From NCBI RefSeq assembly GCF_907163135.1, contig NZ_CAJQUA010000001.1, forward strand, positions 1,255,001-1,319,000: DNA of 64,000 nucleotides, given 5' to 3'. Within the stretch, counting starts at the first letter, position 1; each line of letters opens with the position of its first letter. Position numbers and translations under genes: made by a program. Below the pieces are notes generated by a model. It was not told the DNA's origin, did not search any database, and saw only the letters and a list, made by a program, of their open reading frames with translations. Positions 41,977 through 54,613 of this stretch are shown here, one piece after another. The stretch comes from Brachymonas denitrificans (GTDB lineage: Bacteria > Pseudomonadota > Gammaproteobacteria > Burkholderiales > Burkholderiaceae_C).

Positions 41977-42015
41977 GGAAGCGTGGGAGAGTGGTTTAAT
42001 CCAGCGGTCTTGAAA
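41977..42015 (+). pseudogene. 5' half of host tRNA-Ser(UGA), split by the integrated element
   Basis: The first 39 bases of a serine tRNA: acceptor strand GGAAGCG, D-arm, left anticodon stem GCGGT and the complete anticodon loop CTTGAAA (anticodon TGA). It then runs into unrelated DNA. The missing right part is at 54565-54613: ACCGC pairs with GCGGT, and CGCTTCC pairs with GGAAGCG. Joined at the CTTGAAA repeat, the two give one intact 88-nt tRNA-Ser with CCA. Confidence 0.93.
42009..42015 (+). other. attL: 7-bp core at the left end of the element
   Basis: CTTGAAA, exactly the anticodon loop of the host tRNA-Ser, repeated as attR at 54558-54564. Left flank is host tRNA (GCGGT), right flank is element DNA (TTTGTTG). 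Confidence 0.88.
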
Positions 42016-42035
42016 TTTGTTGTAGGTAGGTACTA

Positions 42036-42123
42036 GGAAGCTTGGCAGAGTGGTCGATTGCACCGGTCTTGAAAACCGGCATACCGCAAGGTATCCAGGG
42101 TTCGAATCCCTGAGCTTCCGCCA
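42036..42123 (+). tRNA. tRNA-Ser(UGA), complete, carried by the element
   Basis: An 88-nt serine tRNA with encoded CCA. Acceptor GGAAGCT / AGCTTCC, anticodon stem CCGGT / ACCGG around loop CTTGAAA (anticodon TGA, reads UCA), long variable arm with ATACC / GGTAT, and T-loop GTTCGAATC within stem CAGG / CCTG. It differs from the split host tRNA in every arm except the anticodon loop and conserved positions. It begins 20 bp inside the element, in the same direction as the host promoter, so RNase P could release it from the chimeric transcript. Confidence 0.93.
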
Positions 42124-42322: not shown

Positions 42323-42478
42323 GCCGTACGGTAAAGCAGTTTCGTAACAGTGCGCCGCGGTAGTGGCAGGTCAAGGCTCCTATGCCCAACTCGGCAAGAC
42401 AAGTACCATAGCCAGAGCAAGCAACCGAGATCCGAGAAATTGATGAATAAGCAGGAACCGTCGCGGAAGGATGTACCG

Positions 42479-43546
42479 ATGTCACTAGACCAAATTGTCA
42501 ATGGCGATTGCCTTGAGCTACTGCGCAGCTTGGATGATGAAACGGTTGATCTCGTAGTTTCGTCGCCGCCCTACAACATCGGTAAAGAGTACGAGGCAAA
42601 GCGAGAGCTTGAACACTACCTCGACGACCAGCGAGCGGTACTGCGGGAGTGCCACCGCGTGCTCAAGCCCACAGGTTCTATCTTCTGGCAGGTCGGTTCG
42701 TTCTCGCACAAAGGTACGCTCGTACCGCTGGACGTGAAATTCTTCCCTATTCTCGAAGACCTCGGCATGCTGCCGCGCAACCGTATCGTGTGGGTTCGTC
42801 AGCATGGCCTCCATGCCACAAAGAAGTTCTCCGGCCGACACGAAACCATCCTGTGGTTCTCCAAGGGGGAAGAATTTTATTTTGATCTTGACGCTGTGCG
42901 AGTGCCTCAAAAGTGGCAGAACAAGAAATCTCACCGAGGCGACAACAAAGGCGAATTGTCTTGCAATCCAGAGGGCAAGAATCCGGGCGACGTGTGGGTG
43001 TTCCAAAACGTGAAGCATAACCACGAGGAACAGACCATACATCCGGCCCAGTTTCCAGAGGGATTGATCGCTCGTATCGTCCTTGCGACAACGCCAGAGG
43101 GCGGAGTGGTGCTAGATCCTTACATGGGCACCGGAACCACAGCAGTAGTCGCTCGGGATTATGGCAGGCACTATATCGGAGCAGAGCTAGACGAGCGTTA
43201 CCACGGTGTTGCCCTACGCAGGCTCAATGGCGAGCCGGATGAAAGCGGTATGTTCCCCAATCTCAAAACATTGCGAGCATATGTGGCGAGAACAGGAAAA
43301 CCGATTGAAAATTATCGCTTTGACGTTCAAATTGGCAAGGTCGCGTCGGATGGAAGCAAGGCCAAAATTTACCCTGAGGAGTACCACGCGGCAGAGTTAG
43401 TAGATCGCTTGCAATACGAAGCTGATGCTTTTGAGGCGAAAATCAATGGACGCGAAATACCGGAGGCCAAAGACTTGAACGGCAAATCAGCAAAACCTCT
43501 TCGTGAAGTTATCCCGCCCCAGCCGCTCCCACTGTTTGGGGAGTAG
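42479..43546 (+). CDS. Type II DNA methyltransferase, probable N4-cytosine (M.BglII/M.BstYI-like)
   Basis: A 355-residue DNA methyltransferase. The catalytic motif IV VSSPPYNIGKEY is near residue 30, ahead of the SAM-binding motif I DPYMGTGTTAVVA near 215: the beta-class order. SPPY is the form usual in N4-cytosine enzymes. It is convergent with a BglII-like endonuclease gene 27 bp away, whose specificity it should protect (expected GATC core, AGATCT or RGATCY). ATG at 42479 has AAGGA at good distance; ATG at 42443 is the alternative. Base composition is much lower in GC than the chromosome. Confidence 0.9.
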   Translation: MSLDQIVNGDCLELLRSLDDETVDLVVSSPPYNIGKEYEAKRELEHYLDDQRAVLRECHRVLKPTGSIFWQVGSFSHKGTLVPLDVKFFPILEDLGMLPRNRIVWVRQHGLHATKKFSGRHETILWFSKGEEFYFDLDAVRVPQKWQNKKSHRGDNKGELSCNPEGKNPGDVWVFQNVKHNHEEQTIHPAQFPEGLIARIVLATTPEGGVVLDPYMGTGTTAVVARDYGRHYIGAELDERYHGVALRRLNGEPDESGMFPNLKTLRAYVARTGKPIENYRFDVQIGKVASDGSKAKIYPEEYHAAELVDRLQYEADAFEAKINGREIPEAKDLNGKSAKPLREVIPPQPLPLFGE

Positions 43547-43573
43547 CAAGAAAACCGTTGACGTTACTCCGCA

Positions 43574-44227
43574 TCAGACGATCTTGCATCTTCCTGCGCG
43601 GCCTTGCGTGATAGTTACAGCTCTCTGGTAGCGGGCAGCCACAGTCCGAGAGTATCGTGCCGCAGCGTAGTCCGTCCAAGTGGCATTCACCTGCCCCACT
43701 GACTCAAACAAGCCGACGAGCCTGATTGGTACGGTGAAAACCCCATTTTGAGCGAGTGCATTAAGTTGATTCACTGCCTGCTCGTAATACAGGGTACTGT
43801 TCGACGAAGGGAACATTCCTGCCTTGGTGACGATAACTACAAGACCAGTTGGCGCACCATGAAAAACAGTACCTGCGTTGAAAAACAGTTGGGATCGGAT
43901 GGTGTTGTTGAGCAGAAATGGATAGTTCGAGAACTGAATCTCTGCGAGCAACCCATTCTTGCCAAAATCAATGTCGGTCCCAAGGAATGAAAATGCAGGT
44001 GGGATTGGGATTCCGCCGCCCCAGCCGAGTGGAGTAAGTGCCGCAGCGATATACTCGTTAGTTCCAACCGGATCGAATATTGGCGAGCCTTGTTTTCCGT
44101 CTTGATCCGATGCTTTCAAGTGTAGTGGCATGTTCAAAAGAACCTGCTCAAGCTCCTGCCATTGGGCAGCATACGGTCCTGCAATAGCCGCTCCAGCGCC
44201 TTGAAAGTCTGTAATTTGTACCTGCAT
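43574..44227 (-). CDS. BglII/BstYI-family type II restriction endonuclease
   Basis: A 217-residue protein, about the size of BglII. The motif DIDFGKNGLLAEIQFSNYP at about residues 88-106 has Asp, then eight residues, Glu, one residue, Gln: the exact spacing of the BglII catalytic residues (Asp84, Glu93, Gln95), an unusual E-x-Q variant of the PD-(D/E)xK site. The following NYPFLLNN segment also fits that family. Recognition is therefore expected to be AGATCT or RGATCY. It is convergent with its methyltransferase; an XRE remnant lies 179 bp upstream in the same direction. Apparently intact. Confidence 0.8.
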   Translation of the reverse strand: MQVQITDFQGAGAAIAGPYAAQWQELEQVLLNMPLHLKASDQDGKQGSPIFDPVGTNEYIAAALTPLGWGGGIPIPPAFSFLGTDIDFGKNGLLAEIQFSNYPFLLNNTIRSQLFFNAGTVFHGAPTGLVVIVTKAGMFPSSNSTLYYEQAVNQLNALAQNGVFTVPIRLVGLFESVGQVNATWTDYAAARYSRTVAARYQRAVTITQGRAGRCKIV

Positions 44228-44495: not shown

Positions 44496-44521
44496 TGAAC
44501 CGCCCCGGGTTTCGAGGAGGC
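44496..44521 (+). repeat. Left inverted repeat of the IS
   Basis: 26 bp, starts TGAACCGCCC; matches the right end base for base in reverse complement. Confidence 0.95.
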
Positions 44522-44545
44522 CCCAACTCTTGAGAAGATGGAGCC

Positions 44546-44869
44546 ATGAACAAGTCCAACAAGTTTTCCCCGGAAGTGCGCGAGCGCGCTGTGCGCATGG
44601 TGCAGGAGCATCGAGCCGAGTACCCTTCGTTGTGGGCAGCTATCGAATCGATTGCGCCGAAGATTGGCTGTGCGCCGCAAACCCTGCACGATTGGGTCAA
44701 GAGAGCCGAGATCGACGCTGGCCTGCGTGCGGGTACCACGACCTCGGATGCGCGACGCATCAAGGAACTGGAGCGCGAAGTCAAGGAGCTGCGCCGTGCC
44801 AATGAGATCCTCAAAACTGCCAGTGCGTTTTTCGCGCAGGCCGAGCTCGACCGCCAGCTCAGGAAGTGA
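44546..44869 (+). CDS. IS3-family transposase OrfA
   Basis: A 107-residue protein with an N-terminal helix-turn-helix ([16 protein letters not shown] ... [15 protein letters not shown]) that recognises the IS ends, and a C-terminal leucine-zipper-like coiled coil ([20 protein letters not shown]). It ends in the overlap GTGA with orfB, which is in the -1 frame, so an OrfAB fusion transposase could be made by frameshifting. Confidence 0.95.
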
Positions 44870-45780
44870 AGGCCTATATCGACCGCCACCGCGATGACTA
44901 CGGGGTCGAGCCCATCTGCCGGGTGCTGCAGATGGCCCCGTCGTGTTACTGGCGCCATGCGGCCCGGCAACGCAACCCGCAACTGCGCAGCGCACGTGCC
45001 CAGCATGACGACCATTTGAAAGCCGACATCCAGCGCGTGTGGCATGCCAACTGGCAGGTCTATGGCGCCGACAAGGTCTGGCTGCAGATGAACCGCGAGG
45101 GCATCCGGGTGGCGCGGTGCACAGTCGAGCGGCTGATGCGTACCATGGGCTTGCAAGGGGCACGCAGAGGCAAGACGATGCGCACCACCACGCCGGACAC
45201 ATCAGTGCCGTGCCCGCTGGACCATGTCAACCGGCTGTTTAAGGCCAGCCGGCCCAACGAGCTGCGGGTGTCGGACTTCACGTACGTCAGCACCTGGCAG
45301 GGCTGGCTGTACGTGGCCTTCGTGGTGGATGTGTACGCCCGGCGCATCGTGGGCTGGCGTGTCAGCCGCAGCATGCACACGGACTTTGTGCTCGATGCGC
45401 TGGAACAGGCCCTGTATGAGCGCCAGCCAGCAGCGCATGCCTTGACGCACCACAGCGACAGGGGCAGCCAGTACGTCAGCATCCGTTACACCGAGCGGCT
45501 GGGCCTGGCAGGTATCCAGCCATCAGTGGGAAGCAAAGGCGACAGCTACGACAACGCGCTGGCCGAGACCATCAACGGGCTATACAAGGCCGAACTGATT
45601 CATCGCCGGGGCCCCTGGAAGACCAGGGAAGCCGTGGAACTGGCGACCCTGCAATGGGTGCACTGGTTCAACCACGTCCGACTGCTCACGCCGATCGGGG
45701 GTATCCCGCCGGCAGAAGCTGAGGCAAACTACTGGAGGCAACTTGCCGACAGCAACACCTTGGCAGAGGTGTCCACTTAA
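44866..45780 (+). CDS. IS3-family transposase OrfB (DDE integrase domain)
   Basis: A 304-residue catalytic part. The HTH_21-type start ([18 protein letters not shown]) is followed by the rve core: first Asp in [10 protein letters not shown], second Asp in [12 protein letters not shown], and Glu in [14 protein letters not shown]. The spacing and the ending [18 protein letters not shown] are typical of IS3. The frame starts at a GTG overlapping the orfA stop; expression probably depends on coupling or -1 frameshift. All catalytic residues are present, so the IS may be active. Confidence 0.95.
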
Positions 45781-45788
45781 ACCAACCA

Positions 45789-45814
45789 GCCTCCTCGAAA
45801 CCCGGGGCGGTTCA
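45789..45814 (-). repeat. Right inverted repeat of the IS
   Basis: 26 bp, perfect complement of the left end. The downstream gene's GAGGAG box starts 13 bp after it. Confidence 0.95.
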
Positions 45815-50258: not shown

Positions 50259-50398
50259 GGTGTAGCGGCTGTAGCAGGTGTAGCCGTAGCAGGTTGCCCA
50301 ATGCAGGTACAAAATAAAGAAGATTTAGGACTTTCAGAATCCCCCGTACCGTTTTCGCTACACCTGCTACAGCTACAGTCGCTACACCGGCTACACCT
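50259..50398. repeat. Mirrored GTAGC arrays beside the DUF3987 gene
   Basis: In the 313-bp gap after the terminator there are four GTAGC copies on plus (starts 50262, 50271, 50280, 50286; steps 9, 9, 6) and five GCTAC copies (50357, 50366, 50372, 50381, 50390; steps 9, 6, 9, 9). Read from the minus strand, the second cluster repeats the first, so the two form an imperfect inverted repeat of about 36 bp arms around a 65-bp centre. It could be an origin or iteron-like site, or a very long hairpin. The last copies touch the DUF3987 stop. No gene is seen in this gap. Confidence 0.55.
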
Positions 50399-53135: not shown

Positions 53136-54398
53136 TTATTCGACTGGCTCCGCTTCGGGCTGCTGCGCTGCCTCGGCTTGCGCCTTAACGGCCACAGCCT
53201 GCGCCTCGATCCAGTCAGCGATGCGCTGTGCTTCCGGTCGCAAGTATTGAAGCTGCTGCGTTTCGAGGTAGTGACGCTCGGTCACGGTCTTGGGTACATG
53301 GTTCGTCAGCAATTCCACCCTGTAGAGATCGAGGCGGCAATTCGCAAGTCCTATCGTCGTGAAGGTGCGCCTCAAATCATGCGGCGATAGGTGGAGGCCT
53401 GCAACCTCGCTGACCTTGTTCATGGTGTCGCGGGGGTCGCGGATATGGCCTGCCTTGCCCCAACTGGTGAAAACGAAGTCACTACCCTTGACGCGCTGCC
53501 GGGTCTTGAGCAGTTCCAATGCTTGCGATGACAGGGGCATCCAGACGGGATTTCTATTTTTCGGGTCGGGTATGTGCCACCAGCCCTCGTCGAGATTTAC
53601 CCTGTCCCATGTCAGCGCGGACGCTTCGCCAATGCGTGCGCCGGTCAGCATCAGGAACATGACAAGGTCAATGCTTGCAAGGGTGTCGCGGTTGTAGGCG
53701 ACTTCGCGCCACTGCTGGAGTGCTGACCACACCGCGCCGACCTTGCTATCGGGTATGCGGGTCGTCTTGGCCTTGATCGGTGCCCATTTCTTGTGCAGCA
53801 CTTCGACAGGGTTGTCCTTGATGATCGCTGTACCGTCCGGCCTGCGGTATTCCCGAATCGCGTAATTGAACAGGGCGCGAAGCACGCTGAATCCCTGATT
53901 GGCTTGCGCTGGTGCGGGGCCGTCGCCTCGCAGGCCGTGATTCTTAATCTCGTTGAACCGCTTTGTGACCGCCTCGCGGGTAATGCTCGCCATAGGCTTC
54001 TTGAGCCATGCCTCAAAGGTTGTGGTCACATGGCGCTCGATCTCGGCCTTGCTGCTGTCCTTTAGCGGGCGGTCGCGCTTGTATGCGTCCGCTACGTCGC
54101 GCAGGCTCACTGTCTCGGCTGCTCGTTCCTTGGCAACGGTTCGCGGGTCAATCCCCTGCCTCATGCTCCGCAGGTGTTCGCGTGCAACCTCGCGGGCTTG
54201 GTCGGCGGTGAATACACCATGCGGCCCGATGCTGATACGGGCCTCCTTGCCATTGACGCGCCCCTGCACGATGTAGGTGATCTTGCCTGCGGGAGTGACG
54301 CGGATGCCGAAGCCGCTCACCTCGCTATCCCAATGCAGGTCATACCCGCTTGCCGGGGGTGTAATTTTGTCGATGTAGGTCTTTGTGAGCTTTGCCAT
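53136..54398 (-). CDS. int: Tyrosine-type site-specific integrase
   Basis: A 420-residue integrase with an N-terminal DUF4102 arm-binding domain (KLTKTYIDKITPPASGYDLHWD), a core-binding domain (about residues 95-190) and a catalytic domain. The catalytic Arg is in LTGARIGEASALTW, the His-x-x-Arg in SPHDLRRTF, a later His or Asn in LLTNHVPKTV and the nucleophile Tyr in ERHYLETQQ. It starts 160 bp from attR and is transcribed away from it, as expected. It is the natural catalyst for insertion in the tRNA-Ser anticodon loop. Confidence 0.95.
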   Translation of the reverse strand: MAKLTKTYIDKITPPASGYDLHWDSEVSGFGIRVTPAGKITYIVQGRVNGKEARISIGPHGVFTADQAREVAREHLRSMRQGIDPRTVAKERAAETVSLRDVADAYKRDRPLKDSSKAEIERHVTTTFEAWLKKPMASITREAVTKRFNEIKNHGLRGDGPAPAQANQGFSVLRALFNYAIREYRRPDGTAIIKDNPVEVLHKKWAPIKAKTTRIPDSKVGAVWSALQQWREVAYNRDTLASIDLVMFLMLTGARIGEASALTWDRVNLDEGWWHIPDPKNRNPVWMPLSSQALELLKTRQRVKGSDFVFTSWGKAGHIRDPRDTMNKVSEVAGLHLSPHDLRRTFTTIGLANCRLDLYRVELLTNHVPKTVTERHYLETQQLQYLRPEAQRIADWIEAQAVAVKAQAEAAQQPEAEPVE

Positions 54399-54557: not shown

Positions 54558-54564
54558 CTTGAAA
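54558..54564 (+). other. attR: 7-bp core at the right end of the element
   Basis: CTTGAAA; element DNA (CGAGTTA) on the left and host tRNA (ACCGCC) on the right. Identical to attL and to the loop of the element-borne tRNA. Confidence 0.88.
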
Positions 54565-54613
54565 ACCGCCGACCAGCAATGGTCCGTGAGTTCGAATCTC
54601 ACCGCTTCCGCCA
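54558..54613 (+). pseudogene. 3' part of host tRNA-Ser(UGA), stranded at the right end
   Basis: Anticodon loop CTTGAAA, right anticodon stem ACCGC, variable arm GACC-AGCAAT-GGTC, T-arm GTGAG-TTCGAAT-CTCAC, acceptor CGCTTCC and GCCA. It completes the 5' half at 41977-42015. No tRNA promoter or 5' half precedes it here, so by itself it cannot give a tRNA. Excision of the element would restore the gene. Confidence 0.93.

What the first reader, a model, noticed from the sequence alone, without database searches (positions are those of the whole stretch)
42479..44227. BglII/BstYI-like restriction-modification system as cargo
The endonuclease has Asp-x8-Glu-x-Gln, the same spacing as the BglII catalytic residues, and the usual size of that family; the convergent methyltransferase is a beta-class SPPY enzyme. 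Restriction enzymes diverge so fast that a recognisable catalytic signature is informative. Prediction: methylation of a GATC-containing hexamer, probably AGATCT or RGATCY, at the cytosine N4.
Basis: partly seen in the sequence, partly recalled or inferred. Interest (0 to 1): 0.7.

Follow-up and report, generated by a model that had tools for sequence, protein, structure and literature searches.

The report
A BglII-type restriction-modification pair
A mobile DNA island in this bacterium carries a close relative of the classic restriction enzyme BglII with its matching protective methyltransferase, so it very probably cuts unprotected DNA at AGATCT; it is a clean but ordinary new member of a well-known kind.

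Summary
The 217-aa protein (43574-44227, minus) is a full-length BglII orthologue: phmmer E=1.9e-64 against the BglII crystal structures, 56% identity, top fold match BglII (TM 0.81). D84, E93 and Q95 of BglII are all kept. At BglII's Ser97-Asn98 it has SN, where BstYI-like enzymes have GK, so AGATCT is favoured over RGATCY. The convergent gene (42479-43546, plus) is a beta-class SPPY amino-methyltransferase. The same convergent pair recurs in Rubrivivax, cyanobacteria, a viral contig and a relative of the host's family. More distant members of this methyltransferase clade sit beside BstYI-like nucleases. M.BglII makes AGAT(4mC)T, and Dam methylation does not block BglII, so m4C at the cytosine is the best prediction. 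It is not proven: the nearest solved methyltransferases are m6A enzymes, and two BglII/BstYI-family nucleases are paired with m6A RGATCY methylases. No C (controller) gene was noticed. The pair is cargo of a 12.6-kb island that splits tRNA-Ser(UGA) and brings a replacement tRNA-Ser(UGA). Activity, cleavage site and modified base are predictions. New member of a known kind; low interest.

The parts
43574..44227 (-). BglII-type endonuclease (R), 217 aa; catalytic D87, E96, Q98
   Evidence: phmmer vs PDB BglII E=1.9e-64; PADLOC REase_II 223-aa model E=3.2e-66; AF2 model vs 1d2i E=1.5e-21, TM 0.81; alignment A1
42479..43546 (+). beta-class amino-methyltransferase (M), SPPYNIGKEY, 355 aa from the ATG with the better ribosome-binding site (alternative ATG at 42443)
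   Evidence: PF01555 E=4.7e-62; PADLOC MTase_II 360-aa model E=2.2e-121, next best 9.5e-73; same partner beside BglII-like R in other loci
42560..42589 (+). catalytic motif IV, SSPPYNIGKE
   Evidence: translation; S-P-P-Y-N-x-G-K invariant in A3 and A4
43271..43546 (+). C-terminal extension of M, found only in methyltransferases paired with BglII-like R, absent from those paired with BstYI-like R
   Evidence: alignment A4; low-confidence region in the model
43547..43573 (.). 27-bp gap between the convergent stop codons; no strong terminator found
41977..42015 (+). 5' half of the host tRNA-Ser(UGA), left end of the island (attL)
   Evidence: intact gene at the empty site in a genus relative, L060
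42036..42123 (+). complete island-borne tRNA-Ser (anticodon TGA)
   Evidence: ARAGORN
54558..54613 (+). 3' half of the host tRNA-Ser(UGA), right end of the island (attR)
   Evidence: right flank matches the empty site in L060 at 87% over 244 nt
53136..54398 (-). tyrosine integrase of the island
   Evidence: PF00589 5e-17 and PF13356 3.3e-14
44496..45814 (+). IS3-like insertion sequence, 26-bp perfect inverted repeats, 268 bp upstream of the R start codon

Best explanation
It is a Type IIP restriction-modification system of the BglII kind, carried as cargo of a tRNA-Ser island. The R protein is expected to bind AGATCT as a homodimer and cut A^GATCT with the D/E/Q active site of BglII. M is expected to methylate the N4 of the cytosine (AGAT4mCT) on both strands and so protect the host's 310 AGATCT sites, while unmodified incoming DNA is cut. 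Shown here: homology, conservation of catalytic residues, fold match, conserved convergent pairing, the island setting. Inferred: site AGATCT, cleavage position, base modified, and that the system is active.
For: R: full-length match to BglII, E=1.9e-64, 56% identity; BstYI only 4e-4. D84, E93, Q95 and the residues I remember as base-contacting in BglII (S97, N98, N140, S141, Y190, R192) are all identical in the window protein; BstYI-like enzymes have GK where BglII and this clade have SN. Predicted fold: BglII structures are the only hits at E<0.001. M: best PADLOC model is 360 aa long with 160 bits of margin. The convergent R-M pair is conserved in Rubrivivax (R 72%, M 83%), ten cyanobacterial genomes, one viral contig and another genome of the host's family. 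At 45-50% identity the M clade is paired with BstYI-like endonucleases in Acinetobacter, Sphingobium and Spirosoma and with a type II endonuclease in phage BcepIL02, and lies beside PF09195 hits in several genomes of the order. M.BglII makes AGAT4mCT (PMC4882945); Dam methylation does not block BglII (REBASE as cited in PMC10287943). SPPY is shared by most N4C-MTases (PMC8885841). Purifying selection: pN 0.18 and 0.12 against pS 0.84 and 0.80 versus Rubrivivax.
Against: The closest solved methyltransferases are m6A enzymes (M.BceJIV, RsrI). BglII/BstYI-family nucleases R.Nph3I and A. baumannii A118 RE are paired with m6A RGATCY methyltransferases. R falls below Pfam's BglII cut-off (20.4 vs 26 bits). 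AGATCT is not clearly avoided in the genome (310 sites). An IS sits 268 bp upstream of R. R is frameshifted in two relatives (L011, L013), so systems of this kind do decay.
Confidence: 0.8

Rival explanations
1. Same BglII-type nuclease and target, but M makes m6A (for example on the outer adenine of AGATCT) rather than m4C.
For: Nearest solved structures are m6A enzymes; best NCBIfam hits are adenine MTases YhdJ and CcrM; other BglII/BstYI-family systems use m6A (PMC10734518, PMC10287943).
Against: Motif is SPPY, not DPPY, in every member of the clade. The characterised relative M.BglII is m4C. Inner-adenine m6A (Dam) does not stop BglII. [quoted passage not shown]
Confidence: 0.15
2. The system recognises RGATCY (BstYI specificity).
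For: M is related to methyltransferases paired with BstYI-like enzymes; one PF09195 enzyme first annotated as BglII (R.Nph3I) proved to be RGATCY.
Against: R is far closer to BglII than to BstYI (221 vs 24 bits), keeps SN rather than GK next to the active site, and M carries the clade-specific C-terminal extension.
Confidence: 0.08
3. R is a silent or decaying passenger and only M works.
For: IS3-like element 268 bp upstream of R; R is frameshifted in two relatives, one with M intact.
Against: R is full-length with all catalytic residues and shows purifying selection.
Confidence: 0.15

Closest known systems
BglII R-M system (Bacillus globigii; R.BglII PDB 1d2i/1dfm/1es8)
   Same: R 56% identical over 196 aa, same D/E/Q catalytic residues and fold; M probably orthologous to M.BglII, judged from a 360-aa PADLOC model (the length I remember for M.BglII; the tool does not name the model)
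   Different: Genes converge and no C (controller) gene was noticed among the neighbouring ORFs; BglII genes run C-R-M in one direction by my recollection of Anton 1997, and PMC4882945 confirms a C gene there. Here the pair rides on a tRNA-Ser island in a proteobacterium
BstYI and BstYI-like systems (RGATCY; PDB 1sdo)
   Same: Same endonuclease superfamily (E=4e-4); partner methyltransferases of the BstYI-like plasmid and phage systems are 43-47% identical over the aligned protein to this M
   Different: BstYI-like R have GK where this R has SN; their M lack the roughly 95-aa C-terminal extension
R.Nph3I/M.Nph3I (phage NrS-3) and A. baumannii A118 RMC
   Same: R of the BglII/BstYI family on mobile or variable DNA
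   Different: RGATCY with m6A, experimentally shown (PMC10734518, PMC10287943)
Convergent BglII-like pairs in Nostoc, Richelia, Tychonema and Rubrivivax (L002-L013)
   Same: Same two genes, same convergent order, R 52-72%, M 65-83%
   Different: Other hosts and flanks; R frameshifted in L011 and L013

Membership tests
BglII endonuclease family | Full-length sequence similarity to R.BglII | tested here: met
   E=1.9e-64 over residues 1-199 of 217
BglII endonuclease family | Catalytic D84, E93, Q95 | tested here: met
   D87, E96, Q98 aligned
BglII endonuclease family | BglII fold | tested here: met
   AF2 mean pLDDT 70, 1d2i TM 0.81; only BglII structures below E 0.001
BglII endonuclease family | Pfam PF09195 above the curated cut-off | tested here: not met
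   20.4 bits vs 26. This is an annotation threshold, not a biological feature: direct similarity to BglII itself is overwhelming, and the profile probably leans to BstYI-like members, which score well in the order
BglII endonuclease family | Cuts A^GATCT | not testable with these tools
   needs enzyme assay
M.BglII-type N4-cytosine methyltransferase | Beta-class PF01555 with SPPY | tested here: met
M.BglII-type N4-cytosine methyltransferase | Sequence orthology to M.BglII | tested here: inconclusive
   M.BglII sequence not held; best hit is an unnamed 360-aa PADLOC model, E=2.2e-121
M.BglII-type N4-cytosine methyltransferase | Makes AGAT4mCT | not testable with these tools
   needs methylome data
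Type IIP R-M system | R and M encoded side by side and conserved as a pair | tested here: met
   convergent pair in L002-L010, L012, L013, L042, L065; L010 M and L012 R are partial in the fetched stretch
BglII R-M operon type | C (controller) gene upstream of R | tested here: inconclusive
   No C-like gene seen by reading the ORFs next to R or M in the window, L002 and L065; not searched with a C-protein profile

The most novel reading that the evidence does not exclude
The C-terminal extension of M, present only in methyltransferases paired with BglII-like nucleases and missing from those paired with BstYI-like ones, is an add-on recognition module that reads the outer A:T pair. Its gain or loss, together with SN/GK in R, would mark the switch between RGATCY and AGATCT in a co-evolving R-M pair.
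Probability: 0.2. Interest if true: 0.45.

Novelty: new member of a known kind. Interest (0 to 1): 0.22.

Why it matters
It is a rare proteobacterial BglII system (2 of 301 sampled genomes of its family), and no other PF01555 or Dam-type (PF02086) methyltransferase gene was found in the genome, so the AGAT4mCT prediction can be tested cleanly by one methylome run. The wider set of BglII-like and BstYI-like pairs that share one methyltransferase clade offers a natural series for asking how R and M change specificity together.

Tried and rejected
Family scans: NCBIfam gave nothing for R; Pfam PF09195 below cut-off. Plasmid and phage collections hold no R of this clade at E<0.01. Site avoidance as support for AGATCT: genome count 310 and a window count of 7 against 12 expected are not decisive; zero sites in the 12.6-kb island against about 1.4 expected is not significant. 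I tried to reach a Bacillus genome to obtain M.BglII itself; a plasmid locus is not accepted as a centre and a viral-contig scan with BglII found none. Promoter and terminator scans of the pair gave nothing above chance. The AF2 model of M has low confidence in the target-recognition and C-terminal parts, so it does not settle base or site. Considered and rejected: that the D-x8-E-x-Q motif is a chance match (full-length homology rules it out).

Full report
Observation. The window holds two intact convergent genes at the stated place: a methyltransferase at 42479-43546 (+) and a 217-residue protein at 43574-44227 (-). Both halves of the observation are confirmed.

The endonuclease. A sequence search of solved structures gives BglII at E=1.9e-64 over residues 1-199; BstYI is a distant second at 4e-4. 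In alignment A1 the window protein is 56% identical to BglII. D84, E93 and Q95 of BglII are D87, E96 and Q98 here. From memory, BglII contacts its bases through S97, N98, N140, S141, Y190 and R192; all six are identical here. BstYI and BstYI-like enzymes read EVQFGKYSF where BglII and this protein read E[VI]QFSNYPF, which favours AGATCT over RGATCY. An AlphaFold2 model made only from window and locus proteins (mean pLDDT 70) matches BglII structures as its only hits below E 0.001, TM-score 0.81. Pfam's own BglII profile scores it below the cut-off (20.4 vs 26 bits), so a Pfam-only annotation would miss it.

The methyltransferase. It is PF01555 at 4.7e-62. In PADLOC's library its best model is a 360-residue Type II methyltransferase at 2.2e-121, with the next at 9.5e-73; the endonuclease's best model is 223 residues long, the length of BglII. 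360 is the length I remember for M.BglII, but the library does not name its models, so orthology to M.BglII is likely, not shown.

The pair elsewhere. A genome scan with the endonuclease found twelve loci: one Rubrivivax MAG (R 72%, M 83%) and eleven cyanobacteria (R 52-64%, M about 65%). The methyltransferase lies beside it, convergent, in all but one (L011, where no methyltransferase match was found and the endonuclease is frameshifted); L010's methyltransferase is truncated, L012's endonuclease runs off its contig, and L013's endonuclease is frameshifted. A viral contig (L042; R 53%, M 61%) and another genome of the host's family (L065; R 53%, M 80%) show the same arrangement. Only 2 of 301 genomes sampled in the family carry this endonuclease. 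Against Rubrivivax, non-synonymous divergence is 0.18 (R) and 0.12 (M) where synonymous sites are saturated, so both genes are under purifying selection.

An independent line ties the methyltransferase clade to GATC-type nucleases. Searching plasmids and phages with the methyltransferase alone led to loci in which a relative with 47-52% local identity sits beside, or on the same small plasmid as, a gene annotated BglII/BstYI family (Acinetobacter, Sphingobium, Spirosoma, Komagataeibacter) or type II restriction endonuclease (phage BcepIL02). Three of the nucleases tested (Acinetobacter, Sphingobium, Spirosoma) match the 203-residue BstYI-length model. Searching the other way, with the endonuclease family PF09195, 5 of 15 loci from the order have this methyltransferase clade alongside. 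These BstYI-type methyltransferases lack the C-terminal extension of about 95 residues that all BglII-type ones have. A role of that extension in reading the outer A:T pair is a hypothesis only.

Which base is modified. SMRT sequencing of the BglII source strain showed AGAT4mCT (PMC4882945). SPPY is typical of N4-cytosine enzymes (PMC8885841). Dam methylation does not inhibit BglII or BstYI (REBASE as cited in PMC10287943), so an enzyme that protects against a BglII-like nuclease should modify another base. Against this, the nearest solved methyltransferases are m6A enzymes, and R.Nph3I and the A118 enzyme, of the same nuclease family, are blocked by m6A in RGATCY. I put N4-cytosine at about 80-85%.

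Setting. The host tRNA-Ser(UGA) gene is split at the anticodon loop: 5' half at 41977-42015, 3' half at 54558-54613. A relative in the same genus has the gene intact, with the window's right-hand flank following it. Between the halves lie a tyrosine integrase, a DUF3987 protein, an IS3-like element and the R-M pair. GC falls from about 65% to 51-61%. The genome has 310 AGATCT sites, no other PF01555 gene and no Dam-family gene; the island's methyltransferase is the only candidate found for GATC-related protection, within those two families.

Verdict. It is a new member of a known kind. What is shown is homology, conservation, fold and context; cleavage, site and modified base remain to be tested.

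Noticed in passing
window 41977-42123 and 54558-54613: The island disrupts the host tRNA-Ser(UGA) at the anticodon loop and does not rebuild it at either end, but carries its own complete, divergent tRNA-Ser(UGA). A search of the genome with it found other serine tRNAs only with CGA and GCT anticodons, so the island may supply the only UGA serine tRNA and be hard to lose. Usual tRNA islands restore the target with their own end sequence (Islander, PMC4383910 abstract).
   Followed up: partly
window 44496-45814: IS3-like element with 26-bp perfect inverted repeats inserted 268 bp upstream of the endonuclease start; it could alter R expression.
   Followed up: no
L011, L013: The endonuclease is frameshifted in two cyanobacterial relatives; in L013 the methyltransferase stays intact.
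   Followed up: partly
L065 (1435-2118 and 352-1434): M is 80% identical to the window's but R only 53%, lower than cyanobacterial R (58%): R and M disagree on relatedness, from faster R change or R exchange.
   Followed up: partly
Pfam PF09195: The profile named after BglII scores this BglII-like endonuclease below its cut-off, so the BglII clade is likely under-annotated.
   Followed up: partly
window 50259-50397: 36-nt inverted repeats, 83% complementary, built of GGTGTAGC-like units, just left of (downstream of) the DUF3987 gene.
   Followed up: no
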